Source of the DNA: Armatimonadota bacterium
GTDB lineage: Bacteria; Armatimonadota; UBA5829; DTJY01
DNA length: 64,000 nucleotides
Assembly: GCA_023511795.1 (NCBI GenBank)
Contig: JAIMAU010000001.1
Span: 1-64,000, forward strand
Reading direction: 5' to 3'
Made by a program: the position numbers and the translations under genes
The notes under the pieces: model-generated
Database searches by the model: none
What the model saw: the letters and a program-made list of their open reading frames with translations, nothing else
Told to the model about the DNA's origin: nothing
In this document: one piece after another, positions 9,860-29,846 of the stretch
How positions within the stretch are numbered: the first letter of the stretch is position 1
How the letters are laid out: each line of letters starts with the position of its first letter

Positions 9860-12670
9860 ATGTCACGGATTTCACTCATCTTTCTCACGGTGTTCGTATT
9901 AGCAGCACTGTGGGCGCCCCAAACGGTGCTGTCTGCTGAGCACCGCGCCTTTTGGGTGGATGCATGGGGCTCAGGTTTCGAAAGCCCGTCGGTTACAACG
10001 GCGATGCTCGACTACGTCGATGCATGTAACTGCAACGCCGTCATAGTCGAGATGCGAAAACGCGGTGATGCCTATTACACGTCTTCTTACGAACCGACGG
10101 GGTGGAACGTAACCCCAGATCCAGGATATGATTGTCTTGCTGATATAGTTCCGAAAGCCCATGCCCGCGGGCTCGAAGTCCATGCCTGGGTTGTAGTCAA
10201 TCGCGTATGGACATTCACTACCCCACCTCCAGAGACGACTCCGCCACATGTATACAACGCTCACCCTGAGTGGTTCTCTTTAACCGATTCAGGCGAAATG
10301 TATGATTCCAGCAACGGAAGTTGGCTGGATCCCGGCCACCCCGAAGTCGAGAATTACCATAAGAACGTGTTTATGGAGATCATCTCCAACTACGATATTG
10401 ATGGTTTTTGCCTTGATTACATCCGCTATGCTGGTTCAAACTGGGGTTATAACCCCACTGCTGTAGCACGTTATAACGCCGAGTACGGTCTCTCGGGCAA
10501 CCCTCCAGCCAACGATTCTCAATGGTCAGATTGGCGGCGAGACCAAGTAACCAATATGGTGAAGAGGATATATCTTGAGGCGAAGGCAGTTAAGCCGAAT
10601 ATCAAGATAGGCGCCGCAATTTGGAATAGTTCGACCACAGGCAGAAACACGTATTTCCAGGACTGGGATCTCTGGATGCAAAACCATTGGCTGGACTATG
10701 GCGCTCCAATGGCTTATTCCTCCACCAATTCGACGTTCAACTCCTGGGTGGATACATACTATAACCAGCAATATGGCCACCACCTGTATGTAATCCAGGG
10801 CTCATATATTAATACAATTAGCAACTCAATGACCCAGATAAGTTATGTACAAAACAAACCAATGCCAGGAGTCCATCTGTACTGCTACCGCGTTACAAAT
10901 AGCGGCACCGTAGATAGAGAAGGGTTTAAGAGTGCTCTGCTTGCCGGTCCATTTGCTACTTATCAGGATCCTCCAACTATGAGCTGGATTAGCAGTCCAA
11001 CGCTTGGAATGCTGAAAGGCTTTGTTAAGAATAGCAATGGCGAAGTCGTTTACCCGGCTACTGTAACAATTCAAGGCAAGAGCACCAAAAATAGCGGTAC
11101 GGGCTTCTATGGCTTCGTAGACCTTACTCCGGGAACGTACACGGCGACTGCAAGTGCCCCGGGTTATACTAATGGCACGGGCCAAGTTACCATTACGGCG
11201 GGCCAGGTTGCCACACTAGATATAACCCTCGGCTCAGACACCGCGCCGCCCATAATTTCCAACGTACGTACCTCGGATGTTCGAGCAACAATCGCCAAGA
11301 TTCTATGGGATACAGACGAAGTTGCTACCAGCCAAGTGGAATATGGGCCTACCTCAACTTATGGGTATCAAACGAGCGAGGATATGACGCTCGTCACTTC
11401 TCATACCGTACAACTTACCGGCCTAGTGCCCAGCACTTTGTATCATTACCGGACGAAGTCGAAAGATGCTGCAAACAACCAGGCAGTATCTGGTGACTAT
11501 ACGTTCATGACAGCCTCTTCTGAGGTTGTAGATGATATTATCATTGACAACCCTCAATGTGAGTTGTATGGCTCTTGGTCTACAGGCACTTCCTCGACTG
11601 ATAAATATGGAACTAACTACTACTACTGCACAACGGCCACCAGCGAAACCAAATGGGCAAAATGGAGGCCAAACATTCTCGTTGGTGGCAATTACGATGT
11701 GTACTGCTGGTATCCTCAGGGGAGTAACCGCTCTACGAGGGCGCCATATACCGTTTATTGGAACGGCGGGTCACAGTTGATTGAAGTTAATCAGCAGATT
11801 AACGGCGGCCGATGGAATCTGCTGGTCACCTCAAAGCCGCATGTTATTGGGACAACGCAATATACCAAACTCGGGAACGGCACGGGCGAAACGTCGCTTA
11901 ACGTGATGGCGGATGCTATTAAGTACGTATTTGCAGCTGGTGCTGATACTCAGCCACCAAGTGTGCCAACGAATCTTGGGGGTAATGCGGTTTCGCCCAC
12001 CAGAGTTGACCTATCTTGGACAGCTTCCACTGATAACGTGGGAGTAGCCGGTTACAAAGTATATCGCAATGGCAGCCAGATTGGCTCCACAGCCGCGACT
12101 AGCTATTCTGACACGACTTGCACGGCTGGCACTACCTACACATATACAGTGAGTGCCTATGACGAAGCGCAAAACGAATCGGCACAAAGCAGTCCTGCGG
12201 TCGTTTCCACGCCCGCAATTCAAAATCGGAATTACGCGCCCTCGTCGATAACCTTAATAAGAGGCACAGTAGCATCCGGCTCGGTGAGCAACTTGGCGGC
12301 GAACGACGCTTCTTACTTAGTAATCAACTCCCAAAGAGTCAGCAATAAGTATTATACGGACTGGTACAGCAATGTCTTTATCTCTGAGGTTCCAAGCCAT
12401 GTAAGCAAGCTTACCATCACTTATGATGGTAAGTTATCAAGCTCACAGACGCAAAGCCTGCACCTGTGGAACTGGACTACCTCTTCATGGACGCAAATCG
12501 ACAGCAGAACTGTCGGTACTAGTGATATTACGATTAATTGGAGCACCACTTCTCCTTCTAATTACATCTCGTCAAGTGGTGAAATAAGGCTGCGGCAGTA
12601 TGTCGACGGCGTTAAGTCTAGCTTTTCATGCTCTGCCGATTTTGTCCAATTTGGAATTGAGTATTGGTAG
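9860..12670 (+). CDS. secreted GHL10 glycosidase-like protein with golvesin-like domain (copy 1)
   Basis: A 936-residue modular exported protein. A signal peptide is at 1-26. The GHL10 (formerly DUF187) TIM barrel covers about 27-385 (HRAFWVDAWGSGF, YDIDGFCLDYIRYAG, GAAIWNSSTTGR). A carboxypeptidase-regulatory-like domain (about 395-475), a fibronectin/phosphatase-N-like domain (about 485-580), a golvesin/xanthan-lyase-CBD-like domain (about 585-725), an Fn3 domain (about 730-815) and a C-terminal sandwich (about 830-936) follow. E. coli DigH of this family cleaves peptide-free peptidoglycan glycans; the substrate here is inferred. The ATG at 9860, with GGAAGGGAG upstream, starts a proper signal peptide; the longer frame from 9755 is rejected. 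Two close paralogs lie at 16802 and 18672. Confidence 0.88.
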   Translation: MSRISLIFLTVFVLAALWAPQTVLSAEHRAFWVDAWGSGFESPSVTTAMLDYVDACNCNAVIVEMRKRGDAYYTSSYEPTGWNVTPDPGYDCLADIVPKAHARGLEVHAWVVVNRVWTFTTPPPETTPPHVYNAHPEWFSLTDSGEMYDSSNGSWLDPGHPEVENYHKNVFMEIISNYDIDGFCLDYIRYAGSNWGYNPTAVARYNAEYGLSGNPPANDSQWSDWRRDQVTNMVKRIYLEAKAVKPNIKIGAAIWNSSTTGRNTYFQDWDLWMQNHWLDYGAPMAYSSTNSTFNSWVDTYYNQQYGHHLYVIQGSYINTISNSMTQISYVQNKPMPGVHLYCYRVTNSGTVDREGFKSALLAGPFATYQDPPTMSWISSPTLGMLKGFVKNSNGEVVYPATVTIQGKSTKNSGTGFYGFVDLTPGTYTATASAPGYTNGTGQVTITAGQVATLDITLGSDTAPPIISNVRTSDVRATIAKILWDTDEVATSQVEYGPTSTYGYQTSEDMTLVTSHTVQLTGLVPSTLYHYRTKSKDAANNQAVSGDYTFMTASSEVVDDIIIDNPQCELYGSWSTGTSSTDKYGTNYYYCTTATSETKWAKWRPNILVGGNYDVYCWYPQGSNRSTRAPYTVYWNGGSQLIEVNQQINGGRWNLLVTSKPHVIGTTQYTKLGNGTGETSLNVMADAIKYVFAAGADTQPPSVPTNLGGNAVSPTRVDLSWTASTDNVGVAGYKVYRNGSQIGSTAATSYSDTTCTAGTTYTYTVSAYDEAQNESAQSSPAVVSTPAIQNRNYAPSSITLIRGTVASGSVSNLAANDASYLVINSQRVSNKYYTDWYSNVFISEVPSHVSKLTITYDGKLSSSQTQSLHLWNWTTSSWTQIDSRTVGTSDITINWSTTSPSNYISSSGEIRLRQYVDGVKSSFSCSADFVQFGIEYW

Positions 12671-12678
12671 CAATTCGC

Positions 12679-12702
12679 GGGGTGGGCTTTGTAACCCACC
12701 CC
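12679..12702 (+). repeat. 3'-end hairpin after GHL10 copy 1
   Basis: GGGGTGGG/CCCACCCC, 8-bp perfect stem, loop CTTTGTAA, 8 bases after the stop codon. No U-tract follows, so it is more likely a transcript-end stabiliser or a weak terminator. Further small hairpins (AGCCCAGC/GCTGGGCT, GTCTGA/TCAGAC, ACCGAA/TTCGGT) fill the rest of the gap to 12923. Confidence 0.5.
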
Positions 12703-12922
12703 ACTTAGACATTCTAAGCTACCAAAGCCTAGAGGTGTTGCAGAAAACAAGATTGTGGGTGAGGTAATTCTTAAGCCCAGCCAGTGATTGCTGGTTAATC
12801 AAAGACAAAATTCGCTGGGCTGGGGAATGCTTTGTTTAAACCAGTCTGACTTAAAATCAGACCGAAAAATTCGGTATCGGTCTATTTTATAGGAAGTTGT
12901 AGTAAGAAAGGTAGTTTAGCAG

Positions 12923-15061
12923 TTGCGTTTAGTAGTATTTATACTCATCTTAAGTGCAGCAGTTGTTTGTAGTCTGCAAGGTTTTGTAATTAGCGCAGAA
13001 AGGGCGGAAGACGAAGGGAAAGCCGCTTTTTATGAGCGGGTTTTGAAAGACGACCCCGGAAACGTACAGGCTAACGTTTACTTCGCAGATAAAGCCTACC
13101 AAGCAGGCAAATTCGCTGATGCCATTGGGTACTACCAGACAGCCCTTGCCACTGAACCCAACAATACCCAGCTAATAATTAAAGCCGCCAAAGCCTACGC
13201 ATTGGCAAAACAACCCAATGAAGCAGAGGCTATGTATAACAGGGCGCTTTCAGTTGACCCGAAATGTGTTGATGCTCACTATGGCCTTGGTTTGTTGTGT
13301 GAGGCAAGGGGGCAATTTAAGGAGGCCGCAGAGCATTTTGCAGTTGTATTTACAGCCCAACCAGACAACGCCGATATCAGATCGCGTTTGGCATATGCGT
13401 GGCTTAATATGGGACGCTATGAGGAGGCGGCAAATCTTTTTGAGAAGATTGCAGATAACAACCCATCGGACCCGGTTCCTGTTAAGACACTTGTGCAAAT
13501 TTACCTAGAAATGAAAAATGGCCCGAAGGCTGAGGCAGTTTTAAAGAAATATGCGGCTGACAATCCAGGAGATTTGTATGCTACGGAGCTTTTGGCGCAG
13601 TTCTATGAGGAGCGCGGGCGTTTGGATGAAGCTCTGGAAGCGTTTAGGGAATTTGTGCGGCAGAATCCTGGCAACAGGGATGGCGAGAATGCAATTGGCA
13701 ATTTCTATCATAGACACAGGCAATTTGACAAAGCTGCCAAAGTATATGAGCAATTGGTAAAGGAGAACCCAAAAGACGAACGCGCGTGGACCAACCTTGT
13801 GAATACATATAGGGATTTGGGCCAGATTGAAAAAGCACTTCAGGAAGCGGATAGGTGGATAGCGAACGATCCAAACACGGCGGCCCCATATCGTCTAAAA
13901 GCAGCTATTTATAGGGAGCAAAAGCGGTTCAAGGATGCATTGCGGGCGCACGAAAGGAGCAAAGGAGCAGAACAGGGTAGCGTAGATCCTTATTTAGCAA
14001 TTGCGGAAATCTATTGGAAAGACCTTGGTCAGCTAGACAACGCTCTCCGAGAGTTAAAAGATGCAGCGAGGTTCTTTCCAATGGACCCCATTGTGAAAAG
14101 GACGATGGTTGAAATTTACGAAGAGAAAAAGGATTATACCGCGGCAGTTGACATATTGCGCAGCATGGAAATGCTTGACCCAGACAATGTTCAGATTGGG
14201 CTGAACATATCGCGGCTTTTGTTGCTAGCTGGAAAGCCACAGGATGCTATTTCCAAATGCCAGAAACTTCTCGAGAAGGACAAGGAAAATCTGGGAATCT
14301 ATGTGCGCCTTGCCGAAGCCCATGAGCAATTGGGGCAATTGGATGAAGCTATCAAAATCTACCAGAATTCTCCACAAAAGAACTTAGAGGCTCAAGCCTG
14401 GGCAACAAGTCGCATATCTGCCGTTAAGGTAAAACAGGGCAAGCTGAACGAGGCTATTGCTGGTTACAAATGGGTGCTTGATAGGTTCCCAGACGCCGAT
14501 AAGCTGTACTCGGAGATTGTGAATTTAGAAATGCAGCGTGGCAGTATTAGTGAGGCAGTTAAGTATCTCACCGAGCGGTTGAACAGTGGTTTGGAGCGGG
14601 AAGCCGCTGTTGAAGCGCTCATTGGCGCGTATGAGCTCCAAGGGTTGAAGCCATTGGAAATAGCCGCAAAAGTGCGCAAAGTCCAAGAGCAGTGTCCCAA
14701 AAACAAAACTGTTGCCTCTGTGCTTGTGGATTACTGTGAGCGAAATAAGCTTGAAGAGCTTTTAATCCAATCGTTGGAAGCTCTCATTGAGGCTGACCCT
14801 GAGGCAATAGAGCAAAGATGTAAGTTGGCTCAGCTCTATGCCGCCTCTGGTCAAAACGCTCAGGCAATTCAGCATTTGCAGAAGGTTGTTGGCAAATCCG
14901 GACACGACGCTGAAAACTATTACTTGCTAGGACAGCTTTTGGAGAAAGTTGGCAAGACGTCAGAAGCGATAGAGGCTTACACCAACGCTTGCGCTTTTGA
15001 AAACAAAGAAGCAGAGAAAGCACTTGAAAGGCTTAAAGCCAAAAATAACGGTGCTAAATAA
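12923..15061 (+). CDS. large exported TPR-repeat protein
   Basis: A 712-residue protein with an N-terminal signal or anchor (MRLVVFILILSAAVVCSL), then an almost unbroken array of about 17-19 tetratricopeptide repeats. Units such as ADAIGYYQTALATEPNN, NEAEAMYNRALSVDPKCVDA and EEAANLFEKIADNNPSD show the W/L-G-Y-A-P signature. TPR superhelices bind other proteins, so a scaffold role in the envelope is likely. It starts at TTG 12923, behind a weak AAAGG; no better start gives a signal peptide. It sits between the first GHL10 gene and the first amidase and is the only non-enzymatic long protein in the first half of the cluster. Confidence 0.85.
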   Translation: MRLVVFILILSAAVVCSLQGFVISAERAEDEGKAAFYERVLKDDPGNVQANVYFADKAYQAGKFADAIGYYQTALATEPNNTQLIIKAAKAYALAKQPNEAEAMYNRALSVDPKCVDAHYGLGLLCEARGQFKEAAEHFAVVFTAQPDNADIRSRLAYAWLNMGRYEEAANLFEKIADNNPSDPVPVKTLVQIYLEMKNGPKAEAVLKKYAADNPGDLYATELLAQFYEERGRLDEALEAFREFVRQNPGNRDGENAIGNFYHRHRQFDKAAKVYEQLVKENPKDERAWTNLVNTYRDLGQIEKALQEADRWIANDPNTAAPYRLKAAIYREQKRFKDALRAHERSKGAEQGSVDPYLAIAEIYWKDLGQLDNALRELKDAARFFPMDPIVKRTMVEIYEEKKDYTAAVDILRSMEMLDPDNVQIGLNISRLLLLAGKPQDAISKCQKLLEKDKENLGIYVRLAEAHEQLGQLDEAIKIYQNSPQKNLEAQAWATSRISAVKVKQGKLNEAIAGYKWVLDRFPDADKLYSEIVNLEMQRGSISEAVKYLTERLNSGLEREAAVEALIGAYELQGLKPLEIAAKVRKVQEQCPKNKTVASVLVDYCERNKLEELLIQSLEALIEADPEAIEQRCKLAQLYAASGQNAQAIQHLQKVVGKSGHDAENYYLLGQLLEKVGKTSEAIEAYTNACAFENKEAEKALERLKAKNNGAK

Positions 15062-15090
15062 AAAGATCTTTGAAAAGAATACCAGTTTAC

Positions 15091-15238
15091 CTATCATCGG
15101 ATAGCGATGATAGGGTGGGCCTAGCAGGGGCTTGGTGGCCGTCCCTGCTGGGCACCATAAGGGTGCGAGACCTGGCTTTGGATGCGGGGCCAGGCTTATA
15201 CCTTGGAGCCGACTCGTTTTGAAGCCGGCTCCAAGGTA
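15091..15238 (+). repeat. four-hairpin structured leader or spacer
   Basis: Four consecutive stem-loops between the TPR gene and the next amidase: 15091-15113 (9 bp, CTATCATCG), 15119-15153 (11 bp with one T-G), 15171-15194 (6 bp, CCTGGC) and 15199-15238 (13 bp, TACCTTGGAGCCG). None has a U-tract. The compact array looks like a structured RNA leader. It matches no riboswitch family I recognise. Confidence 0.5.
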
Positions 15239-15284
15239 CCCCTACAGCAAATAGCCGGAAACTAGCACCTGGAATAAGGAGGTG

Positions 15285-15338
15285 GTGAATTGTTATTCGA
15301 TTGCTAATGGGCCACTTGTTCGCGAATTTGATGCATAA
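15285..15338 (+). CDS. leader micro-ORF (17 codons) ahead of amidase copy 1
   Basis: AAGGAGGTG (15276-15284) is followed at once by GTG, and this frame runs 17 codons to TAA 15336-15338, three bases before the GAGGAGG site of the main gene. The 2-base spacing is poor. A TTG at 15290 with ideal spacing would give a 5-residue peptide instead. Either way a strong ribosome site stands 73 bases before the true start without a real gene behind it. Confidence 0.3.
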   Translation: MNCYSIANGPLVREFDA

Positions 15339-15356
15339 GTTGAGGAGGAAAAATAA

Positions 15357-16421
15357 GTGAAGAGATTCAGCATTGTTTTATTGGTGTTGGCAGTGGCTCT
15401 TATAGCCGCTCCTACCTACGCGCTGAAAGTCTACTCGAATCCGAGCATCCAGACTAACAACGTGAGCCCCGACGGGACCTACAACGAAGGCTACTCGATG
15501 CAGAGCGTGTCGGACCTGTTCTGCGCAAAGTGCGCGAATCGCGGCTTCTCAACAAGGGATAGCAACTGGCTGAGCCTTTCTGCTGCGTGCAGTGATGCAG
15601 ATGCTTGGAACCCGAACTGCTTCATATCCGAGCATACCAATGCGGCCGGCAGTGGAGGTTGGGATTCCAACCATGGCACGATGGGTTTGTATTACTGCAA
15701 CAGTAGCTGCCAGTATGATGCTATTGACCGCAGCCTCTGCATTAAGTGCGTCGACAACTGCATTGCACAGTTTGCCACCGCCGGCCGAGGTGCCAAGTGG
15801 GGGGCAGGTTACTATGGCGACTACTGCTTCTATGGGTCATATAACCTATATGTGCTGTCTCACACGCCCGACATGAACTCGGTGTTAATTGAGGGTCTGT
15901 TCCACACCAATTACGAAGACTGCCAGTTACTGAAGACGTCGAACGGCAGAAACCTTTATGCAGAGGGCCTTTACGTTGGTGTGTGCCAGCAGTATGGTTA
16001 TGACCCATATCCGTCGCCAGACATTATCATAGACAACACAGATGCTGGTTTCTCATGCTCAGCAAACTGGTCAACCGGCACCATGGCCACCGACAAGTAT
16101 GGCACCAATTACCGCTTCAGAAGCACTGCTGCTACCAGCGACCCCGCCACCTGGACGCCGAATATCCCAGTAGCAGGCAGCTGGACTATTTACGCATGGT
16201 GGACAGCTGGCACCAACAGGTCGCCGAACTCGGCCTATCAGGTGTACTACAGTGGCGGAACCACTAATGTCTACGTGAACCAGCAGACTGACGGAGGCAA
16301 GTGGAACGTGCTAACTACGCAGAATCTAGGCACGGGCACAGGTTATCCGGTAAAGAAGTCCTGCTGGGCAACTACTGGCTATGTGGTAATTGCTGATGCC
16401 ATAAAGTGGCATAAGAACTAA
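15357..16421 (+). CDS. secreted Amidase_3-like protein with golvesin-like domain (divergent, copy 1)
   Basis: A 354-residue exported protein with a signal peptide at 1-22. Residues 25-220 have the layout of N-acetylmuramoyl-L-alanine amidase (Amidase_3): a zinc-ligand Glu candidate at 44 (TYNEGYS), His93 (ISEHTNA) and the catalytic Glu179 (LIEGLFHTN). The first zinc His, normally in DPGHGG, is replaced; the region reads NPSIQTNNV, with Gln at that place. Many cysteines (CAKCAN, YCNSSC, CIKCVDNC) mark the domain. Residues 222-354 are a golvesin-like domain (IIIDNTDAGFSCSANWSTGT). GAGGAGG stands 8 bases before the GTG start. It would act on peptidoglycan or related muropeptides outside the cell, if active. 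Confidence 0.8.
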   Translation: MKRFSIVLLVLAVALIAAPTYALKVYSNPSIQTNNVSPDGTYNEGYSMQSVSDLFCAKCANRGFSTRDSNWLSLSAACSDADAWNPNCFISEHTNAAGSGGWDSNHGTMGLYYCNSSCQYDAIDRSLCIKCVDNCIAQFATAGRGAKWGAGYYGDYCFYGSYNLYVLSHTPDMNSVLIEGLFHTNYEDCQLLKTSNGRNLYAEGLYVGVCQQYGYDPYPSPDIIIDNTDAGFSCSANWSTGTMATDKYGTNYRFRSTAATSDPATWTPNIPVAGSWTIYAWWTAGTNRSPNSAYQVYYSGGTTNVYVNQQTDGGKWNVLTTQNLGTGTGYPVKKSCWATTGYVVIADAIKWHKN

Positions 16422-16725: not shown

Positions 16726-16786
16726 ACCCGTCCTAAACGGGTCTAAAAGGCAAAAGGGGTTTTGCCTGAATCAATTTTAGAAATTG
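16726..16786 (+). promoter_or_regulatory. three stacked hairpins between leader peptide and gene
   Basis: ACCCGT/ACGGGT (16726-16742), AGGCAAAA-GGGG-TTTTGCCT (16748-16767) and CAATTT/AAATTG (16772-16786). The last one abuts the GAAAGGAG ribosome site, so pairing here could control access to it. Confidence 0.5.
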
Positions 16787-16801
16787 AAAGGAGAAGATAT
16801 T

Positions 16802-18645: not shown

Positions 18646-18671
18646 GGCAGTTTAGGGAGAAGGTGATTGAG

Positions 18672-21446: not shown

Positions 21447-21472
21447 ACGCCGAGTACTCAGCACGGCGCGAG

Positions 21473-21508
21473 GGGCAGATCGCATGCCCAACTCCATGCG
21501 ATCTGCCC
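21473..21508 (+). repeat. 3'-end hairpin after GHL10 copy 3
   Basis: GGGCAGATCGCATG/CATGCGATCTGCCC, 14-bp perfect stem with 8-base loop, 26 bases after the stop. No U-tract follows, and the next ribosome site begins about 10 bases later. Confidence 0.6.
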
Positions 21509-21528
21509 TAGGAATACGGAGGACAAAT

Positions 21529-23418
21529 ATGTATAGAATCAAGTTCTTGAAGATGGTTTTTTCGCTGTGGTTGATAGCGGCATTTGTTTGCTTGTGTGGC
21601 AATGCTGGATTGGGGGCTGATGCTAATAAGCTTTATGGGATTCATTGGTGGGGACATACTCAAGGAATAGGTGTGGATACTGCTCCAAGGAGCCTGTTGG
21701 ATGTGCCGACGTATTCAGCTTGGGATACAGAGACAGTTCTCACTCACAGCGATTACTGGTGGGGACCTTCATATTTCACTGATCTTTATTCTACCCTCTA
21801 TGGGTGGAACGTGAGCTTAATTACAAGGGTTGATTATACCTGGAATGATACCGTTCCCGCGCCTAGCGACCCTAATTATTCAAGCTGGCCGTCGGTAGTT
21901 GTAGATAACGTGGTTAATGTGCTTAAAAACCAGAGCCATATCTGGATAGTAGGTAATGAACCAAACATCCTGTGTGCTGAGGGAAGCTTGTGGCCTGATA
22001 GGAAGATTCAGCCAGCGCAGTATGCCCAGGTATATCGTAGCGTTCGGAATGCGATACACCAGAGCGCAAGTGTTGGTCCTCCTGGACAGCATATAGTTTT
22101 GCTAGCGGGACCCAGCTATGGTCCTGTGGAGGGCGTGCGGTGGATGGCAGGTAAGGATTATCTTGCCCAAACTCTCGACAATCTCTCACCAAACGAAGTG
22201 GATGGGTTTGCTCTTCATGCCTATGGTTGGACCCTATCAGAGTTCCAAGATCAATATCGCACCCAAATTCGAATCATCGACCAAAAAGGCTTTGGCAACA
22301 AACCCATTTGGATTACGGAATTTGGCCGGTATACCATCGATGACAATGATGAGCAGAATAGCGCCCAATTTGTTAGGGATGCATTTGCGGACGTAAATGC
22401 ATGGAACCAGACGCCAGGTAATCGAGATATAATCGGCATGACATGGTTTGTTTATGACTGCAATCAGCAGGCTAGTGGTGGTTGGAACAATTGGGCAATT
22501 GAGTATTGGAAGGACCATGGTTTCCCCAGCGGAGATTCGCGCGACCTCTTCACTGCCTTTCAGCAGGCGGTTGATCAACGGTATGCTGCGGGTACTTGGG
22601 GAAATCTTGAGTTTATTGTGGATAATCCATCCGCTACTTTTGCCGGTACATGGTATACGGGAACATTGGCCACCGATAAATACGGTTCGGATTACCGGTA
22701 TGCAACCACAGCGCCGAGTGAAACGGCAACTGCAATTTGGCGGCCGAACATCACCATGGCGGGTGACTATGATGTCTATGCATGGCATTCTCAGGGGAGT
22801 AATAGGTCTACTGCGGCGCCGCATACTGTGTATTGGAACGGCGGCTCTCAAACAGTGAGCATTAACCAAACAGCCAATGGCGGACGCTGGAACGTTTTGG
22901 TGAGCTCCAAGCCGTTTGCCACAGGGACGAATGGCTATGTGAAAGTTGGTAATGGCACAGGCGAGTCGGGCAAAGTCGTTATGGCCGACGCAGTGCGATT
23001 TATGTGCCTTCAGCCCGTAGACCTCATAGTTGATAACTCAGATGCCGGATTTAGTGCGTCAGCCAACTGGAGCACTGGAACGATAGCGAAGGACAAATAT
23101 GGCCCAAACTATAGATTTAGGCAAACGCAAGCTACGAGTGACCCAGCGACTTGGACGTTTAACCTGCCAGTGCCTGGAAGGTATGAGGTGTATGCTTGGT
23201 GGTCGGCAGGCACTAATAGGTCGGCTACTGCGCCTTACATTGTGTACTACAGCGGTGGCTCGCAGACTGTGGTTAAGAATCAGCAAACGAGTGGCGGCAC
23301 GTGGAACAGCTTGGGTGCTTGGGAATTCGCTAGCGGGAGCAATCAGGTGAAGCTTTCCTGCTGGACTACAACAGGCTACGTTGTTATTGGAGACGCTGTG
23401 CGAATGGTTTTGCGCTGA
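21529..23418 (+). CDS. secreted clan-A-like TIM-barrel glycosidase with two golvesin-like domains
   Basis: A 629-residue exported protein with a signal peptide at 1-30. Residues about 33-355 look like a (beta/alpha)8 glycosidase of clan A (GH5/GH39-like). The acid/base candidate is Glu144 in IWIVGNEPN and the nucleophile candidate is Glu264 in PIWITEFGRY, the expected spacing for the strand-4 and strand-7 glutamates. Two golvesin-like domains follow (about 360-490, DNPSATFAGTWYTGT; about 495-629, DNSDAGFSASANWSTGT). In the last domain the usual first Cys (FSCS) is Ala while the second (LSCW) remains. GGAGG stands 6 bases before the ATG; the longer in-frame extension from 21382 overlaps the upstream gene and is rejected. 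The substrate is unknown. Confidence 0.82.
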   Translation: MYRIKFLKMVFSLWLIAAFVCLCGNAGLGADANKLYGIHWWGHTQGIGVDTAPRSLLDVPTYSAWDTETVLTHSDYWWGPSYFTDLYSTLYGWNVSLITRVDYTWNDTVPAPSDPNYSSWPSVVVDNVVNVLKNQSHIWIVGNEPNILCAEGSLWPDRKIQPAQYAQVYRSVRNAIHQSASVGPPGQHIVLLAGPSYGPVEGVRWMAGKDYLAQTLDNLSPNEVDGFALHAYGWTLSEFQDQYRTQIRIIDQKGFGNKPIWITEFGRYTIDDNDEQNSAQFVRDAFADVNAWNQTPGNRDIIGMTWFVYDCNQQASGGWNNWAIEYWKDHGFPSGDSRDLFTAFQQAVDQRYAAGTWGNLEFIVDNPSATFAGTWYTGTLATDKYGSDYRYATTAPSETATAIWRPNITMAGDYDVYAWHSQGSNRSTAAPHTVYWNGGSQTVSINQTANGGRWNVLVSSKPFATGTNGYVKVGNGTGESGKVVMADAVRFMCLQPVDLIVDNSDAGFSASANWSTGTIAKDKYGPNYRFRQTQATSDPATWTFNLPVPGRYEVYAWWSAGTNRSATAPYIVYYSGGSQTVVKNQQTSGGTWNSLGAWEFASGSNQVKLSCWTTTGYVVIGDAVRMVLR

Positions 23419-23420
23419 AA

Positions 23421-23437
23421 TGCTTGTTTTACAAGCA
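23421..23437 (+). repeat. 3'-end hairpin after the clan-A-like gene
   Basis: TGCTTG-TTTTA-CAAGCA, a 6-bp perfect stem 2 bases after the stop codon. Weak, and without a U-tract. Confidence 0.35.
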
Positions 23438-23536
23438 GTTAGAAGGCGGGATTAATTAGGTTTTCAATCTGGCGAAGCCTCTTGGAATAAATTGAAATAT
23501 CATAAGCTCGGCTAACAGCCGGAAGGAGAGGAGGTG

Positions 23537-23590
23537 GTGTTTAGAGAAGAAGGGATATTAATTCAAAATAAACGTAATTTTAAAAATTAG
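23537..23590 (+). CDS. leader micro-ORF (17 codons) ahead of amidase copy 2
   Basis: GTG at 23537, 8 bases after GGAAGGAG and directly after AGGAGGTG, opens a 17-codon frame beginning VFREEGILIQ. It ends at TAG 23588-23590, touching the AAGGAGG site of the amidase gene. The arrangement (double strong ribosome site, short frame, stop at the next ribosome site) repeats that at 9777. Confidence 0.4.
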   Translation: MFREEGILIQNKRNFKN

Positions 23591-23606
23591 AAGGAGGATT
23601 TGAAAA

Positions 23607-24626
23607 ATGAAGGTACTTAGCATCATTTGTCTTGCTCTGCTTTGCTCGTCGGTGGCATTTGCCGGCGTTGCTGGGCAGAAGATATGCATCGACCCGGGCC
23701 ATGGCGGCTCGGACCCAGGTGCTGTAGGATTCGGGCTAGAGGAAGAGGACGTCAACCTTGATATTGGTCTCAGGGCTCGGGATCTATTCCAGCTTGACGG
23801 CGCTACGGTCATTATGACCCGAACGTCAGACGTATACGTGTCGCTGCAGGGCCGCTGCGACATCGCCAACAACAATGGTGCGGACAGGTTCCTCTGCACC
23901 CATTGCAACGCTCACAGCGACAGTAGCGCAAACGGCACAGAGACTTTCTGCTGTGCAGGATGTAGCGCCACGTCATATGATCTCCGGAATAAGATTAATC
24001 CGGAGATGGTTTCCCATATGCAGACGGTCAATAGAGGTTTGAAGACTGCCGACTTCTATGTGCTTGTAAATACCAACATGCCGGCAATCCTGTGCGAGGT
24101 GGCCTTCATAACCAACGCCGCAGACAATGCTAAGCTTGCAAGCGGAACATGGCGACAGGAAGCAGCAAGGGCTTACCTGCACGGCACGCAGAGCCACTAT
24201 GGCGAAGTGCCGCACGATCCAGTGAGCGACATTATAATTGACAATAGCTCCGGCTCATTCTCCTGTTCAGCCAATTGGGCTACCGGCACAAGCGCGGCAG
24301 ACAAATATGGAAGCGACTATCGCTGGAGAAGCACAGCTGCGACCAGCGATCCAGCTACTTGGACGCCTAACATACCTGTAGCAGGCAGCTGGACGGTTTA
24401 CGCATGGTGGTCTGCCGGCACCAACAGGTCGCCAAACTCGGCTTATCAAGTGAATACGACGAGTGGCGCCGTCAATGTTTACGTGAACCAGCAGACCAAC
24501 GGCGGCCAGTGGAATTCGCTTGGCACGTTTAACCTCGGAACCGGCGGTTATTGGGTCAAGAAGTCTTGCTGGGCATCCACTGGCTATGTTGTTATAGCAG
24601 ATGCCATTAAGTGGCATAAGAACTAG
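23607..24626 (+). CDS. secreted N-acetylmuramoyl-L-alanine amidase with golvesin-like domain (copy 2)
   Basis: A 339-residue exported zinc amidase. The signal peptide is at 1-20 and the Amidase_3 domain at about 24-200. The zinc ligands are His32 (IDPGHGGSDPG), Glu45 (GLEEEDVNLDI) and His99 (CTHCNAH); Glu164 (ILCEVAFITN) is the catalytic Glu. An unusual Cys-rich segment (FCCAGCS, residues 114-120) replaces the aromatic strand seen after GTET in ordinary members. Residues 208-339 are a golvesin-like domain with the Cys pair FSCSANW and KSCWAS. It should cleave the bond between MurNAc and L-Ala of peptidoglycan outside the cell. AAGGAGG stands 9 bases before the ATG. The 29217 gene is a shorter paralog. 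Confidence 0.93.
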   Translation: MKVLSIICLALLCSSVAFAGVAGQKICIDPGHGGSDPGAVGFGLEEEDVNLDIGLRARDLFQLDGATVIMTRTSDVYVSLQGRCDIANNNGADRFLCTHCNAHSDSSANGTETFCCAGCSATSYDLRNKINPEMVSHMQTVNRGLKTADFYVLVNTNMPAILCEVAFITNAADNAKLASGTWRQEAARAYLHGTQSHYGEVPHDPVSDIIIDNSSGSFSCSANWATGTSAADKYGSDYRWRSTAATSDPATWTPNIPVAGSWTVYAWWSAGTNRSPNSAYQVNTTSGAVNVYVNQQTNGGQWNSLGTFNLGTGGYWVKKSCWASTGYVVIADAIKWHKN

Positions 24627-24644
24627 TCTAGTTTAACTGGACCT

Positions 24645-24674
24645 TGTGGGGGCAGGCTTTGTCTTGCCCCCACA
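24645..24674 (+). repeat. 3'-end hairpin after amidase copy 2
   Basis: TGTGGGGGCA/TGCCCCCACA, 10-bp perfect stem with a 10-base loop, 18 bases after the stop. A-rich sequence follows, not a U-tract. Confidence 0.5.
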
Positions 24675-24809
24675 CAAAGGACATAACTTAATCTGTATGG
24701 CTACTCTGTCTGAAGCGGAATAGGGCATATTACAGAATCAGTTAGGGCGGAAAGAATCGGCAAACTGACGAAGGTTTATATGCTACCAATCAAAAAGCGG
24801 GAGATTTGC

Positions 24810-25883
24810 ATGAAATATTTACAGTTATTTTTGATAGTAAGTTGTCTAATATATGTTTTCATTATGCCGGCATGTGCTCAAAGGGTAGAGCTTCTCAAAG
24901 AAGAGGGTGGTGCTGTCGAGAATCCGCCTGAGAGCCTCCAGCTTGAATACAAGTTCAAAGTAGGTGATGTTCGAAAGTATGACATCAACATCGATGGCGA
25001 AGGCATGATGAGGCTGCCGGGCCAAGACGAACAATCAAAGTTGGAAGCTCGAACAACAATGAGAGTCGTTCAGCATGTAATTGCTCAACTCCCTTCGGAC
25101 GGGGGCTGGCGTATTGAGTGGGATACAATTAAAGCCACACTGCTCATACCAGAGTTCGGCGAGATATTTATGACAGTTCCACATATCGAATATGAGGTGG
25201 ATAAATATGGTAAGGTTAAAAAGCTCAAGGGCCTTGACGAACTTGCCGTTTGCCCTGGACTGCCTCAGCAGAAAACCTTAGGCAATGTCCTTAACCAACT
25301 GCCTTTTGGAGGATTTCCTCGGAAGGAAATAAAGCCCGATGAAACTTGGGAAGACTTGTATGAGATTCAGATTCCAGGTCAGCAAGCTACTAGGATAAAA
25401 GTAAAATCAAGGCTAATGGGCTTTGAGAGAATTCGAAACTTCGATTGCGCCAAAATTGAAACCACCTACGAAGCACCATTCACTCTAGATTTGAGCAAGC
25501 TCCGAAAATCTGATAAGGCAGCAAAAACTTCGGAAATAAAAGACAAGCCTGAAGAAAAATTAACCAGCGAATCTGAGAATAAACAGCCACAAAAGCCGCA
25601 AATTATTTCTGGAACAGAGACAGGCAGTGTCTGGACCTACTTTGCATATAAAGAGGGCTTCACAGTTCAAGTTTATGCACAAGTAGACTTGCATGCAGAC
25701 ATCCAAGATGACAAAGAATCAACCGCGGTTAAACCCATTGACACCAGGGCGATTGTGCCAGTAGGGGATGAATCTCCAGATACCCACAAAATAGAGCACG
25801 ATGTGGACTTAAGATATTTGACAGTATGCTTGCTTGTGCCTGAAGACGATGAAAAGGAGGAGCAAACAAAGGATGAGAAGTGA
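24810..25883 (+). CDS. exported LEYKFK-type protein, paralog A
   Basis: A 357-residue exported protein of unknown function. The signal peptide is MKYLQLFLIVSCLIYVFIM followed by PACAQ. The mature protein begins with the family hallmark NPPESLQLEYKFKVGDVRKYD and has a conserved EVDKYGKVKKLKGLDEL and DETWEDLY core. A charged, Lys/Glu-rich insert follows (about 235-275), then a strand-rich end. Paralogs lie at 27074 and, more distantly, 57474; the layout recalls DUF6263-type proteins, which I cannot confirm. The ATG at 24810 has GGGAG upstream; an in-frame ATG at 24780 lacks a site. Its 3' end overlaps the propeller gene by 11 bases, so the two are co-translated. Confidence 0.75.
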   Translation: MKYLQLFLIVSCLIYVFIMPACAQRVELLKEEGGAVENPPESLQLEYKFKVGDVRKYDINIDGEGMMRLPGQDEQSKLEARTTMRVVQHVIAQLPSDGGWRIEWDTIKATLLIPEFGEIFMTVPHIEYEVDKYGKVKKLKGLDELAVCPGLPQQKTLGNVLNQLPFGGFPRKEIKPDETWEDLYEIQIPGQQATRIKVKSRLMGFERIRNFDCAKIETTYEAPFTLDLSKLRKSDKAAKTSEIKDKPEEKLTSESENKQPQKPQIISGTETGSVWTYFAYKEGFTVQVYAQVDLHADIQDDKESTAVKPIDTRAIVPVGDESPDTHKIEHDVDLRYLTVCLLVPEDDEKEEQTKDEK

Positions 25884-26937
25884 GCCTGTCTATAAGCGCA
25901 ATTTAATTTTACCGATTTTGTTTTTGTTTGTTTTCATGGCTGTGCCGGTTTCTGCATTTCAATTGGGCGAGGGTGTTGCTCTTCCAGTGCCGGTTCCAGG
26001 CTTGTTCAACGTGCCAAAGTGGGCGCCAGATGGAAGCGGCTTAGCATTCACAGGCGAACGCTATACTGGTTTATATTACACAGACCTGGCTGGCAACGTC
26101 TCGGTGATATCTGATGCGAAGCTTGCGGGATGGCGCTATCAATGGTCCCCCGATGGCCAAAGCTTGATATATAGGATTCGTAGCGAAGATGGGATGGGTT
26201 TGGCACTAATGCAGGCGAAAAGAGGAGAGGCTGGTTCGAAGCAGCTCACTCCTTTTCTGAACGATTTGTTTCCACCAAGATGTGGAAAGGATGGGATAAC
26301 CTATAGGTCTGGCGACGAACTCATCACATTGGACGAGGAAGGCAACGTAATCTCAGTCCACAGTTTGTCCCAAGGACGAGGTGTTATGTCGCGGGTTATG
26401 AGCGTGGCGGCAAATCTTATGCTTGGCAGAATTACGGGGGCGACTTTCACTAGTTTTGCTTGTGCGCTTTCCAGCGAGGCGGCAGATGGCAAGCCAGGAA
26501 GCGGTGTCTATGTGGATTCTGAGAGCCAGATATGGATTGTTGATGAAAATGGCAACCGTCGAAAGCTTATCGACGTTGAGGGCGAACCAGGGTACTGTCC
26601 TCCGACTGAGTCACCGCAAGGAGACAAATATTGTGTAGAGGGATATAGTGGCAACCTTTATGTAGTTGATCCAAGGGGAGGCACCCCAGTTAATTTAGGC
26701 GAGGGGCACAACCCATCATGGTCGCCGGATGGAAGATATGTAATTTTTGAGGTAACAACGGATGATGGGCATATAATTACTTCATCGGACCTCTGGATTG
26801 CTAGCATAGACGGTAGCCAAAGATTTCAGCTTACTAGTACGCCTGGCATTGAAGCGGACCCATCTTGGTCGCCCGACGGTAAGTATATTGCTTATATTTT
26901 GGACGGCAAGATTTATATTGCTCCAATTGAGCCCTAA
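25873..26937 (+). CDS. exported PD40/TolB-like beta-propeller protein, paralog A
   Basis: A 354-residue exported protein with a signal peptide (LILPILFLFVFMAVPVSAFQ) and several PD40/TolB-type propeller blades. The signature W(S/A)PDG recurs: KWAPDGSGLAFTG, QWSPDGQSLIYRI, SWSPDGRYVIFEV and SWSPDGKYIAYIL. TolB-like propellers dock other proteins in the periplasm. The ATG at 25873 overlaps the upstream stop (ATGAGAAGTGA) and has AAGGAGG 12 bases before it; an in-frame ATG at 25849 is possible but lies inside the upstream gene. A near twin lies at 28066. Confidence 0.85.
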   Translation: MRSEPVYKRNLILPILFLFVFMAVPVSAFQLGEGVALPVPVPGLFNVPKWAPDGSGLAFTGERYTGLYYTDLAGNVSVISDAKLAGWRYQWSPDGQSLIYRIRSEDGMGLALMQAKRGEAGSKQLTPFLNDLFPPRCGKDGITYRSGDELITLDEEGNVISVHSLSQGRGVMSRVMSVAANLMLGRITGATFTSFACALSSEAADGKPGSGVYVDSESQIWIVDENGNRRKLIDVEGEPGYCPPTESPQGDKYCVEGYSGNLYVVDPRGGTPVNLGEGHNPSWSPDGRYVIFEVTTDDGHIITSSDLWIASIDGSQRFQLTSTPGIEADPSWSPDGKYIAYILDGKIYIAPIEP

Positions 26938-27073
26938 GGTAAGCAGTGGTGCTAAAAGGATTAGGCTCCAATTGCTGAGAGGCAATTAGCTTAAATGCGA
27001 ACCAAACCACATGGATGTGTATAAGTTAATAAGTTACACGTATAACCTTAAGCTGAGAGGAGGGATGTAAAAG

Positions 27074-28069
27074 GTGAAAAGAGCTATCGCAATTTTTTGC
27101 ACATTGTTGCTTTGCCTCCTTTCGGCTGCATTGCTTCCAATCAGAGCCGAAGACACTGGTGCAAAAAATGAAAAGATAGAAAAGGTAGAGAATCCACCGG
27201 CTAGCGTCAACCTTGAGTACAAATTCAAGGTAGGCGAGATGCGCAGATACAACATGACGATAGACGCCTCGGGTGTTTTTGCATTGCCAAAGGGAACGAA
27301 TGAGACAGAATTTAAAACGCACACTCGGCTGACTGTTATACAACATGCAACGGCTTACCTTCAAAAAGAAGATGTTTGGAAGCTTGAATTGGACGTTCTC
27401 AGTGCAATCCTTTCAATTCCTAACTTTGGCGAAACTTTGATGACCTTCCCGCCACTCGACCTAGAAGTAGATAAATATGGGCAAGTTCGAAAAATAAAAG
27501 GAATTGAGGAGTTGAAAACCAGTGGCTTGCCGAAGGATAGAACTATAGAAAACATCCTAAGCCAGCTGAAGTTTCTTGGTTTACCACAAAAAGAACTTCA
27601 TGTCGGGGATACTTGGGAACAGGAATACCCTATTGAGGCGCTTGACCAATCGGTAACAGTGAAAACGGTCTCAAAGCTGGTTGGTTTTGAACGCGTTGAT
27701 GGGATAAATTGCGCAAAAATTGAGAGCACATTCGAAGTGCCATTTAAGTTTGAGATGAAGAAGAGTGAGGATTCTGCAACCAAAAGTTCTTCTACAAAGG
27801 AGGCGCCAAAGAGATTTCTTGTTGGCACTGAAAAAGGGGAGCATGTGACCCATTTTGCATATGAGGAAGGCAAAGTAATACGCGCGCAAGCCACTATAAC
27901 ACTTGTCGCGGATATTCAGTCAGAAGGTAGCGAGTCGGATAAGAATAATTCCACGTCTACCTTAAATAAAGAGGGTTCCGCCGAAGAGCGGCATGACCTC
28001 AACATCAAATATATTTTGGTTTCAAAATTCGATCCTGAGCTTCCCATAAATTTGGAGGAAAAAGAATGA
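27074..28069 (+). CDS. exported LEYKFK-type protein, paralog B
   Basis: A 331-residue exported protein, clearly a duplicate of the 24810 protein. It shares the same order: signal peptide (1-25), NPPASVNLEYKFKVGEMRRYN, EVDKYGQVRKIKGIEEL, GDTWEQEYPI and a Lys-rich variable insert followed by a strand-rich end. It starts with GTG 27074, 9 bases after AGGAGGG. Its stop overlaps the next start (ATGA), so translation of the two is coupled. The stronger similarity at the core than in the insert suggests the insert is a flexible linker. Function unknown. Confidence 0.75.
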   Translation: MKRAIAIFCTLLLCLLSAALLPIRAEDTGAKNEKIEKVENPPASVNLEYKFKVGEMRRYNMTIDASGVFALPKGTNETEFKTHTRLTVIQHATAYLQKEDVWKLELDVLSAILSIPNFGETLMTFPPLDLEVDKYGQVRKIKGIEELKTSGLPKDRTIENILSQLKFLGLPQKELHVGDTWEQEYPIEALDQSVTVKTVSKLVGFERVDGINCAKIESTFEVPFKFEMKKSEDSATKSSSTKEAPKRFLVGTEKGEHVTHFAYEEGKVIRAQATITLVADIQSEGSESDKNNSTSTLNKEGSAEERHDLNIKYILVSKFDPELPINLEEKE

Positions 28070-29109
28070 GAGCAATGCATGCGGTTTTAATGCTTGGTCT
28101 GGCGACTTGCTTAGTTGTACTACCTGCTAGTGCTTTTCAGCTTGGTACTGGAATCGCGCTTCCTCTGCAAGGTCAGTTTGTTAGTCCTGTTTGGTCGCCC
28201 ACCGGCGAAGGTCTTGCTTTGGCTGGAGACCGGTTTCAAGGGCTTTACTATACTGACTTGATGGGCAATCTAAAGGTAATCTCTGATGCATCGCTTTCGG
28301 GATGGAAATTCTCCTGGTCGCCTGACGGCCAGGCGCTTGCGTATAGAATGCGGCCAAGTGACGACGATGTAGCAATGGCTGCTATGGTAGCTGGCATGGA
28401 TGGGAAAGTTCAGCAGGTTTCTCCTTGGGAAAACGATTTACTACCGCCGAAGTGGGGCAAGGATGGCTTAACATATCGCTCAGGTGATGAACTTGTTACG
28501 GTTGATAAGGATGGAAATGTTAAGAGCACATACAGCCTTACGCAAGGTCGGGGGTTGTTATCGAAAATTGTAAACATCTTCGGCACATTTATGCTTATGG
28601 ATGTAACAGGGGCTACATTTGCTGCTTATGGGTCCCTTTTAAGTGTAGAACAGGCGGAAGTAAAGCCTCCAGTGGGAGTGTATGTTGATTCTGATAACCA
28701 GCTTTGGGCTATTGATGAGAACGGCAATCGCAAGAAGTTACTGGAGGGTGAGGATGAAGCAGGCTTCAACATGCCAGTGGAGTCGCCCGACGGGGATAAG
28801 TACGCGGTTGAAGGTTTTGGCGGCAAGATATACGTTGTTGATAAGAAGGGCGGATTGCCAGTTGACCTAGGTCCTGGAAGTAATCCCTCATGGTCGCCGG
28901 ATGGAAGATATTTAATTTATGAAGTTACATCTGACGATGGCCATTCCATTCTTTCGTCCGACCTGTGGGTTTCAAGTGTTGATGGGCTTGAGCGATATCA
29001 GCTTACCAACACGCCCGGGATAGAGTCATGGCCAAGCTGGTCGCCAGATGGAAAGTACATCGCTTACGTAGTTGACGGCGTTGTATATATTGCTCCAATC
29101 CAACCCTAA
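28066..29109 (+). CDS. exported PD40/TolB-like beta-propeller protein, paralog B
   Basis: A 347-residue exported protein and near twin of the 25873 protein. The signal peptide is at 1-25. Propeller blades carry VWSPTGEGLALAG, SWSPDGQALAYRM, SWSPDGRYLIYEV and SWSPDGKYIAYVV, and both twins end in an identical IAPI-x-P tail. The middle segment DKDGNVKSTYSLTQGRGLLS also matches its twin. GGAGG stands 7 bases before the ATG, which overlaps the upstream TGA. Each LEYKFK-type protein is paired with its own propeller, so the two probably form one envelope complex. Confidence 0.85.
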   Translation: MRAMHAVLMLGLATCLVVLPASAFQLGTGIALPLQGQFVSPVWSPTGEGLALAGDRFQGLYYTDLMGNLKVISDASLSGWKFSWSPDGQALAYRMRPSDDDVAMAAMVAGMDGKVQQVSPWENDLLPPKWGKDGLTYRSGDELVTVDKDGNVKSTYSLTQGRGLLSKIVNIFGTFMLMDVTGATFAAYGSLLSVEQAEVKPPVGVYVDSDNQLWAIDENGNRKKLLEGEDEAGFNMPVESPDGDKYAVEGFGGKIYVVDKKGGLPVDLGPGSNPSWSPDGRYLIYEVTSDDGHSILSSDLWVSSVDGLERYQLTNTPGIESWPSWSPDGKYIAYVVDGVVYIAPIQP

Positions 29110-29144
29110 TGGATTTGGAGCTATGCAAGCAGAGGAGGTGGTCT

Positions 29145-29153
29145 ATGAGTTAA
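29145..29153 (+). promoter_or_regulatory. minimal start-stop element ahead of amidase copy 3
   Basis: A perfect AGGAGGTG (29133-29140) is followed at ideal distance by ATG-AGT-TAA, a two-codon frame. The true gene begins 64 bases later at its own AAGGAGG. This is the fifth leader in the cluster with a strong but geneless ribosome site. Confidence 0.4.
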
Positions 29154-29216
29154 GAGAACGTATGTAGGGTACAATGTGCCTATTTTGCGGAAAACTGGAA
29201 AAGGAGGAATTTGTAA

Positions 29217-29846
29217 GTGAGAAAGGTGCTAACTATAATTTGCATGCTGGCGCTTGTGATTTGTCTTGCTTCTGGCGTCAGCGCCCACCTTACGGAGAAG
29301 AAAATCTGCATCGACCCGGGTCATGGTGGCTCGGACCCAGGCGCAGTAAGTGGTGGTTATGAAGAGGAAGACATCAACCTTGCAATTGGTAACAGGATGA
29401 ATGTTCGCTTCATTAATGATGCGGCTTCAACAAAAATGACAAGGACAAGCGATGTCTACGTTTCTCTCTCAAGCAGATGCTCAATAGCCAACACATGGGG
29501 AGCAAATAGGTTCGAGAGCACCCACTGCAATGCCTTCAGCAGCAGCACGGCTAACGGTACGGAGACCTACTGCTGCCCTGGGTGCAGCACCTACTCCTAT
29601 GACCTGCGCAACAAGGTTAACCCTGAACTCGTTTCCCATATGGGAACAGTAAATAGGGGTGTAAAGACAGCTTCGTTCACAGTGCTGACCGGGACAACGA
29701 TGCCTGCAATTCTGGGCGAGGTTGCGTTCATAACCAACACCGCCGACCGCAACAAACTCATAAGCTCGACATATCAGGATTATGCAGGCATTGCGTACCT
29801 GCATGGAACGCAGAGCCACTATGGCGTAACCCCGCACACCCATTAA
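29217..29846 (+). CDS. secreted N-acetylmuramoyl-L-alanine amidase (copy 3, no golvesin domain)
   Basis: A 209-residue exported zinc amidase, nearly the catalytic half of the 23607 protein. The signal peptide is at 1-23. Zinc ligands are His36 (IDPGHGGSDPG), Glu49 (GYEEEDINLAI) and the His of STHCNAF near 103; the catalytic Glu near 168 lies in LGEVAFITN. The Cys-rich YCCPGCS loop is kept. The protein ends just after HGTQSHYG, exactly where the golvesin-like domain would begin in its paralog, so it either lost or never gained the binding module. It starts with GTG, 9 bases after AAGGAGG. A strong terminator follows, closing the cluster. Confidence 0.93.
   Translation: MRKVLTIICMLALVICLASGVSAHLTEKKICIDPGHGGSDPGAVSGGYEEEDINLAIGNRMNVRFINDAASTKMTRTSDVYVSLSSRCSIANTWGANRFESTHCNAFSSSTANGTETYCCPGCSTYSYDLRNKVNPELVSHMGTVNRGVKTASFTVLTGTTMPAILGEVAFITNTADRNKLISSTYQDYAGIAYLHGTQSHYGVTPHTH

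What the first reader, a model, noticed from the sequence alone, without database searches (positions are those of the whole stretch)
9860..29846. Secreted amidase plus GHL10 cluster sharing one binding module: possible new glycan-processing system
In 20 kb there are three Amidase_3-type proteins, three GHL10 proteins and one clan-A-like barrel, all exported. Six of the seven carry golvesin/xanthan-lyase-CBD-like domains, eight copies in all. In E. coli, amidases remove stem peptides and DigH (GHL10) cuts the denuded strands, with SPOR domains binding that glycan. The same two activities joined by a different shared module suggest a SPOR-independent denuded-glycan system, or a secreted cocktail against other cells' walls. 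Tandem copies show recent expansion.
Basis: partly seen in the sequence, partly recalled or inferred. Interest (0 to 1): 0.85.

Follow-up and report, generated by a model that had tools for sequence, protein, structure and literature searches.

The report
Exported wall-cutting enzymes sharing sugar-binding module
A two-membraned bacterium carries a conserved row of exported enzymes that probably strip and then cut bacterial cell-wall sugar chains, nearly all tethered by the same sugar-binding module; this is a new arrangement of known parts, not a new kind of machine.

Summary
Pfam finds three Amidase_3 proteins, three GHL10 proteins and one Glyco_hydro_cc barrel, with eight Golvesin_C (PF25275) domains on six of the seven; one amidase (W3) is divergent. 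Golvesin_C is not peptidoglycan-specific: its AlphaFold model (pLDDT 94) matches the xanthan-lyase C-terminus (TM 0.92) and CBM35/CBM6 folds (TM 0.6-0.7), and elsewhere it sits on pectate-lyase-like, FAD-oxidoreductase, protease and PQQ proteins. A 2,382-aa protein in the same genome fuses Amidase_2 + GHL10 + four golvesins. One golvesin lineage serves GHL10s and amidases and moves between them. A compact amidase/GHL10/DUF6263-like/propeller locus recurs in another genus. New functional evidence: GHL10s of this motif type lie beside anhydro-MurNAc kinase in six of eight Deinococcus plasmid loci and in a haloarchaeon, so they most likely cut peptidoglycan glycan. "SPOR-independent" fails: the genome has a SPOR protein, next to a golvesin-free GHL10. 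"Recent expansion" also fails: the duplicates predate the genus. Best reading: an exported peptidoglycan-dismantling set (amidase, then lytic-transglycosylase-like GHL10) held to a shared glycan by a CBM35-like anchor; own or foreign walls remains open.

The parts
9755..12670 (+). W1: GHL10 (9977-10771) + CarboxypepD_reg + PapN-like/fn3 + Golvesin_C (11540-11926); likely start ATG 9860
   Evidence: Pfam; Cwp19-like GHL10 profile match
12923..15061 (+). exported TPR protein inside the cluster
   Evidence: Pfam TPR; 96% identical in G001
15357..16421 (+). W3: divergent Amidase_3 (15552-15986; motif-1 His lost, later H and E motifs kept) + Golvesin_C (16023-16409)
   Evidence: dN/dS 0.041
16784..18598 (+). 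W4: GHL10 (16886-17713) + CarboxypepD_reg + Golvesin_C (18200-18589)
18663..21446 (+). W5: GHL10 (18798-19583) + fn3-type domains + 2 Golvesin_C (20370-20759, 21051-21434)
21382..23418 (+). W6: Glyco_hydro_cc barrel + 2 Golvesin_C (22615-23004, 23026-23409); likely start ATG 21529
23607..24626 (+). W7: canonical Amidase_3 (23682-24185) + Golvesin_C (24231-24614)
24780..25883 (+). DUF6263-like exported protein, copy A (likely start 24810); part of the conserved core unit
25834..26937 (+). PD40 beta-propeller (TolB-like repeats; no TolB_N in the genome), copy A
27074..28069 (+). DUF6263-like, copy B (39% identical to A)
28066..29109 (+). PD40 beta-propeller, copy B (57% identical to A)
29217..29846 (+). 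W8: Amidase_3 (29304-29807), no golvesin

Best explanation
The locus encodes an exported peptidoglycan-dismantling set. Canonical Amidase_3 proteins (W7, W8) remove stem peptides. The GHL10 proteins (W1, W4, W5), a subfamily distinct from DigH, cut the stripped glycan, most likely as lytic transglycosylases that yield anhydro-MurNAc ends. Golvesin_C, a CBM35-like jelly roll, holds six of the seven enzymes on the same glycan surface so that the two steps run side by side. Which glycan it binds (wall glycan, a wall-linked anionic polymer or exopolysaccharide) is unknown. Shown by computation: domains, fold, Amidase_2-GHL10-golvesin fusion, conserved synteny, purifying selection, muramyl-catabolism context of the GHL10 subfamily. 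Inferred: substrate, order of steps, anchoring role. Not resolved: own-wall remodelling versus digestion of foreign or dead walls.
For: Domains. Fusion Amidase_2 + GHL10 + 4 Golvesin in one 2,382-aa protein, also in G001, with the expected Amidase_2 His/His/Asp residues. 12 of 19 golvesin proteins of the genome carry an amidase or GHL10, 13 counting a frame-broken amidase gene. Golvesin tree: GHL10/amidase golvesins versus others need 8 label changes against about 37 for shuffled labels, while amidase and GHL10 golvesins interleave (7 changes among 14 amidase rows). Synteny GHL10-golv / amidase-golv / amidase / DUF6263-like / propeller in G003, and amidase-golv / DUF / propeller in G015. Deinococcus and haloarchaeal GHL10s with the window-type motif beside AnmK, MurQ, NagZ, DUF1343 or an amidase. 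Closest solved GHL10 is Cwp19 (profile E 1.6e-46), a lytic transglycosylase (PMC6016235). Diderm with Omp85 and secretins. AnmK in the genome. A GH20 hexosaminidase gene follows a GHL10-golvesin gene (L056).
Against: GHL10 here lacks the second Asp (Cwp19 D196) of the DigH/Cwp19 motif and differs at other proposed active-site positions. A Deinococcus chromosomal GHL10 (DogH) was reported to act on starch (PMC9967864). Golvesin also sits on non-wall proteins. In the window's own genome AnmK is not beside a GHL10. The shuffled-label test does not correct for relatedness.
Confidence: 0.62

Rival explanations
1. One reading: Golvesin_C specifically recognises denuded peptidoglycan glycan and replaces SPOR in a division-linked amidase/GHL10 pathway.
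For: One golvesin lineage is shared by amidases (two unrelated folds) and GHL10s; the organism is a diderm, so Sec-exported enzymes meet its own sacculus.
Against: The genome has a SPOR protein, beside a golvesin-free GHL10 in G000, G001, G003 and G007. The golvesin-richest genomes keep SPOR and several SPOR-less relatives have few golvesins. The fold is CBM35-like and partners are diverse.
Confidence: 0.15
2. A secreted cocktail that lyses or scavenges other cells' walls (necromass digestion or predation), exported across the outer membrane through a secretin system. This is a sub-case of the best explanation that fixes the target as foreign walls.
For: Many paralogues (23 GHL10 and 28 Golvesin hits in 3.1 Mb); modular fn3/Ig linkers typical of extracellular enzymes; three secretins; AnmK in the genome. 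The GHL10 subfamily occurs in sugar-uptake loci of Deinococcus and in a haloarchaeon, an organism without peptidoglycan of its own.
Against: No dedicated secretion signal or immunity gene identified; no uptake operon next to the cluster.
Confidence: 0.4
3. The GHL10s act on a non-peptidoglycan polysaccharide of the cell's own capsule or matrix, and the amidases are only neighbours.
For: Golvesin's solved homologue is a xanthan lyase domain. Golvesin partners include pectate-lyase-like and heparinase-like proteins. The proposed D196 is missing. DogH was reported on starch (PMC9967864).
Against: Amidase-GHL10 fusion and conserved synteny; muramyl-catabolism neighbourhoods of same-motif GHL10s.
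Confidence: 0.18

Closest known systems
E. coli AmiA/B/C amidases + DigH (GHL10) + SPOR proteins, denuded-glycan processing at the septum (PMC12288456)
   Same: Amidase_3 plus a GHL10 enzyme in a diderm; two-step removal of peptide, then glycan
   Different: The enzymes carry a CBM35-like golvesin module, are clustered and multiplied, and the GHL10s belong to a different motif subfamily (xD[YRF][VI]RY...PM[NA]Y, not FDDYFY...PQIY); SPOR is also present in the genome
Cwp19 of Clostridioides difficile, GHL10 lytic transglycosylase with wall-binding CWB2 repeats (PMC6016235, PMC5765458)
   Same: GHL10 catalytic domain joined to a glycan-binding module; closest solved structure
   Different: CWB2 instead of golvesin; has D195-D196 whereas the window proteins keep only the first Asp
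Paenibacillus xanthan lyase (PDB 6F2P), C-terminal domain
   Same: Golvesin_C homologue, TM 0.92 to the model, 41% identity in the structural alignment
   Different: Attached to a polysaccharide lyase acting on xanthan
CBM35 of exo-beta-D-glucosaminidase CsxA (PDB 2VZP/2VZR), a CBM35 that interacts with a cell-wall surface polysaccharide (Montanier 2009, as cited in PMC11002231)
   Same: Jelly-roll fold, weak profile similarity (E 0.012), a binding module that can place an enzyme on the cell wall
   Different: 16-18% identity; uronate-binding signature not demonstrated in golvesin
Deinococcus AnmK/MurQ/ABC/GHL10 muramyl-sugar loci (L194, L195, L208, L210, L211, L213)
   Same: Same GHL10 family (29-32% identity to W4 over 67-91% of the query); motif read in two of the six, L194 and L195, as FDRVRY
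   Different: No golvesin annotated in the loci seen; linked to sugar uptake and kinase genes

Membership tests
GHL10 (PF02638) | Profile match over the curated cut-off across the barrel | tested here: met
   126-152 bits against cut-off 27.9
GHL10, DigH/Cwp19 type | FDDY motif with the second Asp (Cwp19 D196) and the PQxY motif | tested here: not met
   All 50 GHL10 motifs counted in this class read xD[YRF]xR[YF]; M instead of Q before xY in the own-genome rows aligned
Amidase_3 (W7, W8) | Zinc/catalytic motifs DPGH...E...H...E | tested here: met
   Alignment
Amidase_3 (W3) | Same motifs | tested here: not met
   First His replaced (SNPSIQ); SEHTN and LIEGLF kept; conserved in G001 with dN/dS 0.041
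Golvesin_C (PF25275) | Profile match over the cut-off | tested here: met
   8 copies, each over 31.6 bits
CBM35/CBM6-like fold | Beta-jelly-roll matching solved CBM35 structures | tested here: met
   TM 0.6-0.7, Foldseek probability 1.00 for the CBM35/CBM6 matches
CBM35 family proper | Sequence membership and uronate-binding residues | tested here: inconclusive
   Profile E 0.012 only; ligand site not mapped, no coordinates available
SPOR-independent denuded-glycan system | Absence of SPOR | tested here: not met
   SPOR at C2:27797-28012, E 5.1e-15
SPOR-independent denuded-glycan system | Shared module binds denuded glycan preferentially | not testable with these tools
   Needs a binding assay
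Canonical Tol-Pal link (TolB) | TolB_N domain | tested here: not met
   No PF04052 in the genome; propellers are PD40 repeats only

The most novel reading that the evidence does not exclude
Golvesin_C of the wall-enzyme lineage is a new peptidoglycan-glycan-binding CBM (denuded strands or anhydro ends) that works beside SPOR, and unites three enzyme folds (Amidase_2, Amidase_3, GHL10) into a processive wall-dismantling system typical of this phylum.
Probability: 0.22. Interest if true: 0.78.

Novelty: new variant of a known kind. Interest (0 to 1): 0.52.

Why it matters
GHL10 is a large, thinly characterised family. The D[YRF][VI]RY subfamily has no assigned function that I could find; its linkage to anhydro-MurNAc kinase, MurQ, NagZ and NamZ-like genes, and its fusion to amidases, point to a second branch of peptidoglycan-glycan lyases and make a testable prediction. 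Golvesin_C could become a CBM family with a wall-directed lineage. The locus supplies ready constructs for both tests.

Tried and rejected
(3) GHL10 structure model from four sequences: mean pLDDT 59.5, too weak for active-site reading; its top match was still Cwp19. (4) GHL10 relatives in viral contigs: none; golvesin in four viral contigs only. (5) 'GHL10 replaces lytic transglycosylases': rejected, all 21 genomes have SLT domains. (6) 'Golvesin replaces SPOR': rejected as above. (7) Own AnmK beside a GHL10: not so. (8) Promoter and terminator scans: no more sites than shuffles. (9) Literature: no paper found on bacterial golvesin-domain function; the 'golvesin' hits were mostly cell-biology papers, many on Dictyostelium.
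Full report
WHAT IS THERE. The 12 genes from 9755 to 29846 are co-oriented; besides the seven enzymes they include a TPR protein and two tandem copies of a two-gene unit, a DUF6263-like exported protein plus a PD40 propeller. All seven enzymes start with a hydrophobic Sec-type signal and none shows a lipobox.

AGE AND CONSTRAINT. A same-genus genome (G001) keeps the whole row gene for gene at 95-99% identity with dN/dS 0.03-0.15. Paralogous enzymes within the row are only 65-73% identical, so the duplications predate the split of these two genomes and are not recent. W3 has lost the first zinc-motif His yet is under strong purifying selection (0.041), so it is a maintained variant rather than a decaying gene.

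GENOME SETTING. The 3.09-Mb genome has 23 GHL10 hits, 28 Golvesin_C and 8 Amidase_3. Of 19 golvesin proteins, eight carry GHL10 and four Amidase_3; a fifth amidase-golvesin gene (L050) is broken over three frames in this assembly while a counterpart in G001 (L106) is intact. One protein (L048, 2,382 aa) fuses Amidase_2, GHL10 and four golvesins, also in G001; its Amidase_2 keeps the expected His/His/Asp residues. The others are a pectate-lyase-like protein, a heparinase-like protein, a PQQ protein, a LamG protein, a DUF5722-like protein and W6.

THE SHARED MODULE. A 15-sequence golvesin alignment gave an AlphaFold model with pLDDT 94.1. Foldseek: xanthan-lyase C-terminal domain TM 0.92, then CBM35/CBM6-type modules at about 0.6-0.7, including uronate-binding CBM35s and a xanthan-binding module; by profile, only 6F2P is strong and CsxA CBM35 is marginal (E 0.012). 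[quoted passage not shown] SPOR is a different fold (my knowledge). So golvesin is a carbohydrate-binding jelly roll with unknown ligand.

IS THE PARTNERSHIP REAL? In class relatives outside the genus, 31 of 63 golvesin proteins carry GHL10 and four an amidase, 28 something else or cut off by a contig end (the overlap filter missed at least one more amidase-golvesin gene). Across the phylum golvesin is in 75 of 151 genomes, and in other classes also on Amidase_2, serine beta-lactamase-like, subtilase, FAD-oxidoreductase and pectate-lyase-like proteins. In the golvesin tree the wall-enzyme label needs 8 changes against about 37 for shuffled labels, and amidase and GHL10 copies interleave; W4's golvesin groups with those of W3 and W7. 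One lineage of the module is thus shared and exchanged between amidases and GHL10s, while pectate-lyase-like, PQQ and FAD proteins carry others. Caveat: shuffles ignore relatedness and the alignment is short.

SYNTENY. G003 (another genus) has GHL10-golv, amidase-golv, a long amidase, DUF6263-like and propeller in a row; G015 (another family) has amidase-golv, DUF and propeller. Among 151 genomes of the phylum the close form of the DUF was found only in these four, always beside an Amidase_3 gene.

WHAT DO THE GHL10s CUT? Cwp19, the closest solved structure (profile E 1.6e-46), is a lytic transglycosylase (PMC6016235), and DigH cuts denuded glycan (PMC12288456). But the GHL10s here form a separate motif class: the first Asp (Cwp19 D195) is invariant, the second (D196, proposed as catalytic or stabilising in PMC5765458) is Tyr, Arg or Phe. 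The same class occurs in two Deinococcus species and a haloarchaeon. Six of eight Deinococcus plasmid loci place GHL10 with anhydro-MurNAc kinase and an ABC importer, often MurQ or a serine hydrolase, and in some DUF1343 (NamZ family, from memory) or an amidase; in the archaeon it lies beside AnmK, NagZ and DUF1343. AnmK acts on anhydro-MurNAc, a lytic-transglycosylase product (established knowledge). This is the best available evidence that the subfamily cuts peptidoglycan glycan. In the window's genome one GHL10-golvesin gene is followed by GH20 and another GHL10 by a beta-lactamase-family hydrolase, and AnmK is present, though not adjacent.

SPOR. The genome has one SPOR protein; its gene neighbours a golvesin-free GHL10 in G000, G001, G003 and G007. 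That looks like an ordinary SPOR/GHL10 housekeeping pair and argues that the golvesin set is additional, not a replacement.

MECHANISM AND OPEN POINT. Amidase strips, GHL10 cuts, golvesin tethers. Omp85 shows an outer membrane, so default export puts the enzymes at the own sacculus; three secretins, modular linkers and the scavenging context elsewhere make export to foreign or dead walls equally plausible. I rate peptidoglycan as substrate about 0.75 and the full model 0.62; the own/foreign question is close to even. The confidence of the foreign-wall rival (0.4) overlaps with that of the best explanation, because it is a sub-case of it.

VERDICT. Observation confirmed, interpretation partly supported: a new variant of a known kind, of good but not exceptional interest; the GHL10-AnmK link is the most useful lead.

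Noticed in passing
L192:11884-17442 (Natrononativus amylolyticus, a haloarchaeon): GHL10 beside anhydro-MurNAc kinase, NagZ and DUF1343: a peptidoglycan-sugar catabolic locus in an archaeon that has no peptidoglycan of its own.
   Followed up: partly
L194, L195, L208, L210, L211, L213 (Deinococcus plasmids): Conserved locus AnmK / mostly GntR / ABC sugar importer / GHL10 with variable MurQ, serine hydrolase, DUF1343 and amidase; absent at two other Deinococcus GHL10 loci (L209, L212).
   Followed up: yes
L061:2777-6333; also L152, L154, L156: SPOR gene next to a golvesin-free GHL10 (with a TPR tail in the same genus and family) in four genomes of two families.
   Followed up: partly
L048:6160-13305 (G000 C7): 2,382-aa exported protein: Amidase_2 + GHL10 + four Golvesin_C + fn3; counterpart in G001 (L100).
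   Followed up: yes
L050:6435-9457 (G000 C6): Amidase_3 + Golvesin gene broken over three frames; a counterpart is intact in the same-genus genome (L106). Pseudogene or assembly error not decided.
   Followed up: partly
L058:8902-15372 (G000 C1): About 2,150-aa PQQ-repeat protein with two divergent golvesins, upstream of pilus-assembly-like genes; similar 1,900-2,500-aa proteins recur across the class.
   Followed up: no
L056:7280-11972; L064:5596-7919: GHL10-golvesin followed by a GH20 hexosaminidase gene; another GHL10 overlapping a beta-lactamase-family serine hydrolase gene.
   Followed up: partly
L045:1-4620 (Ignavibacteriales): Golvesin-bearing barrel-like protein, FAD-oxidoreductase-like ORF and a DigH-type (FDDYFY) GHL10 in a row; the two enzymes end in type IX secretion-like C-termini (judged by eye).
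   Followed up: no
L135, L136, L137 (other classes of the phylum): Compact Amidase_2 + Golvesin_C proteins of 444-617 aa.
   Followed up: partly
window 6943-8685 (-): Subtilase with Big_7 domain just upstream, transcribed away from the cluster; in G146 (L132) a subtilase carries two golvesins.
   Followed up: no
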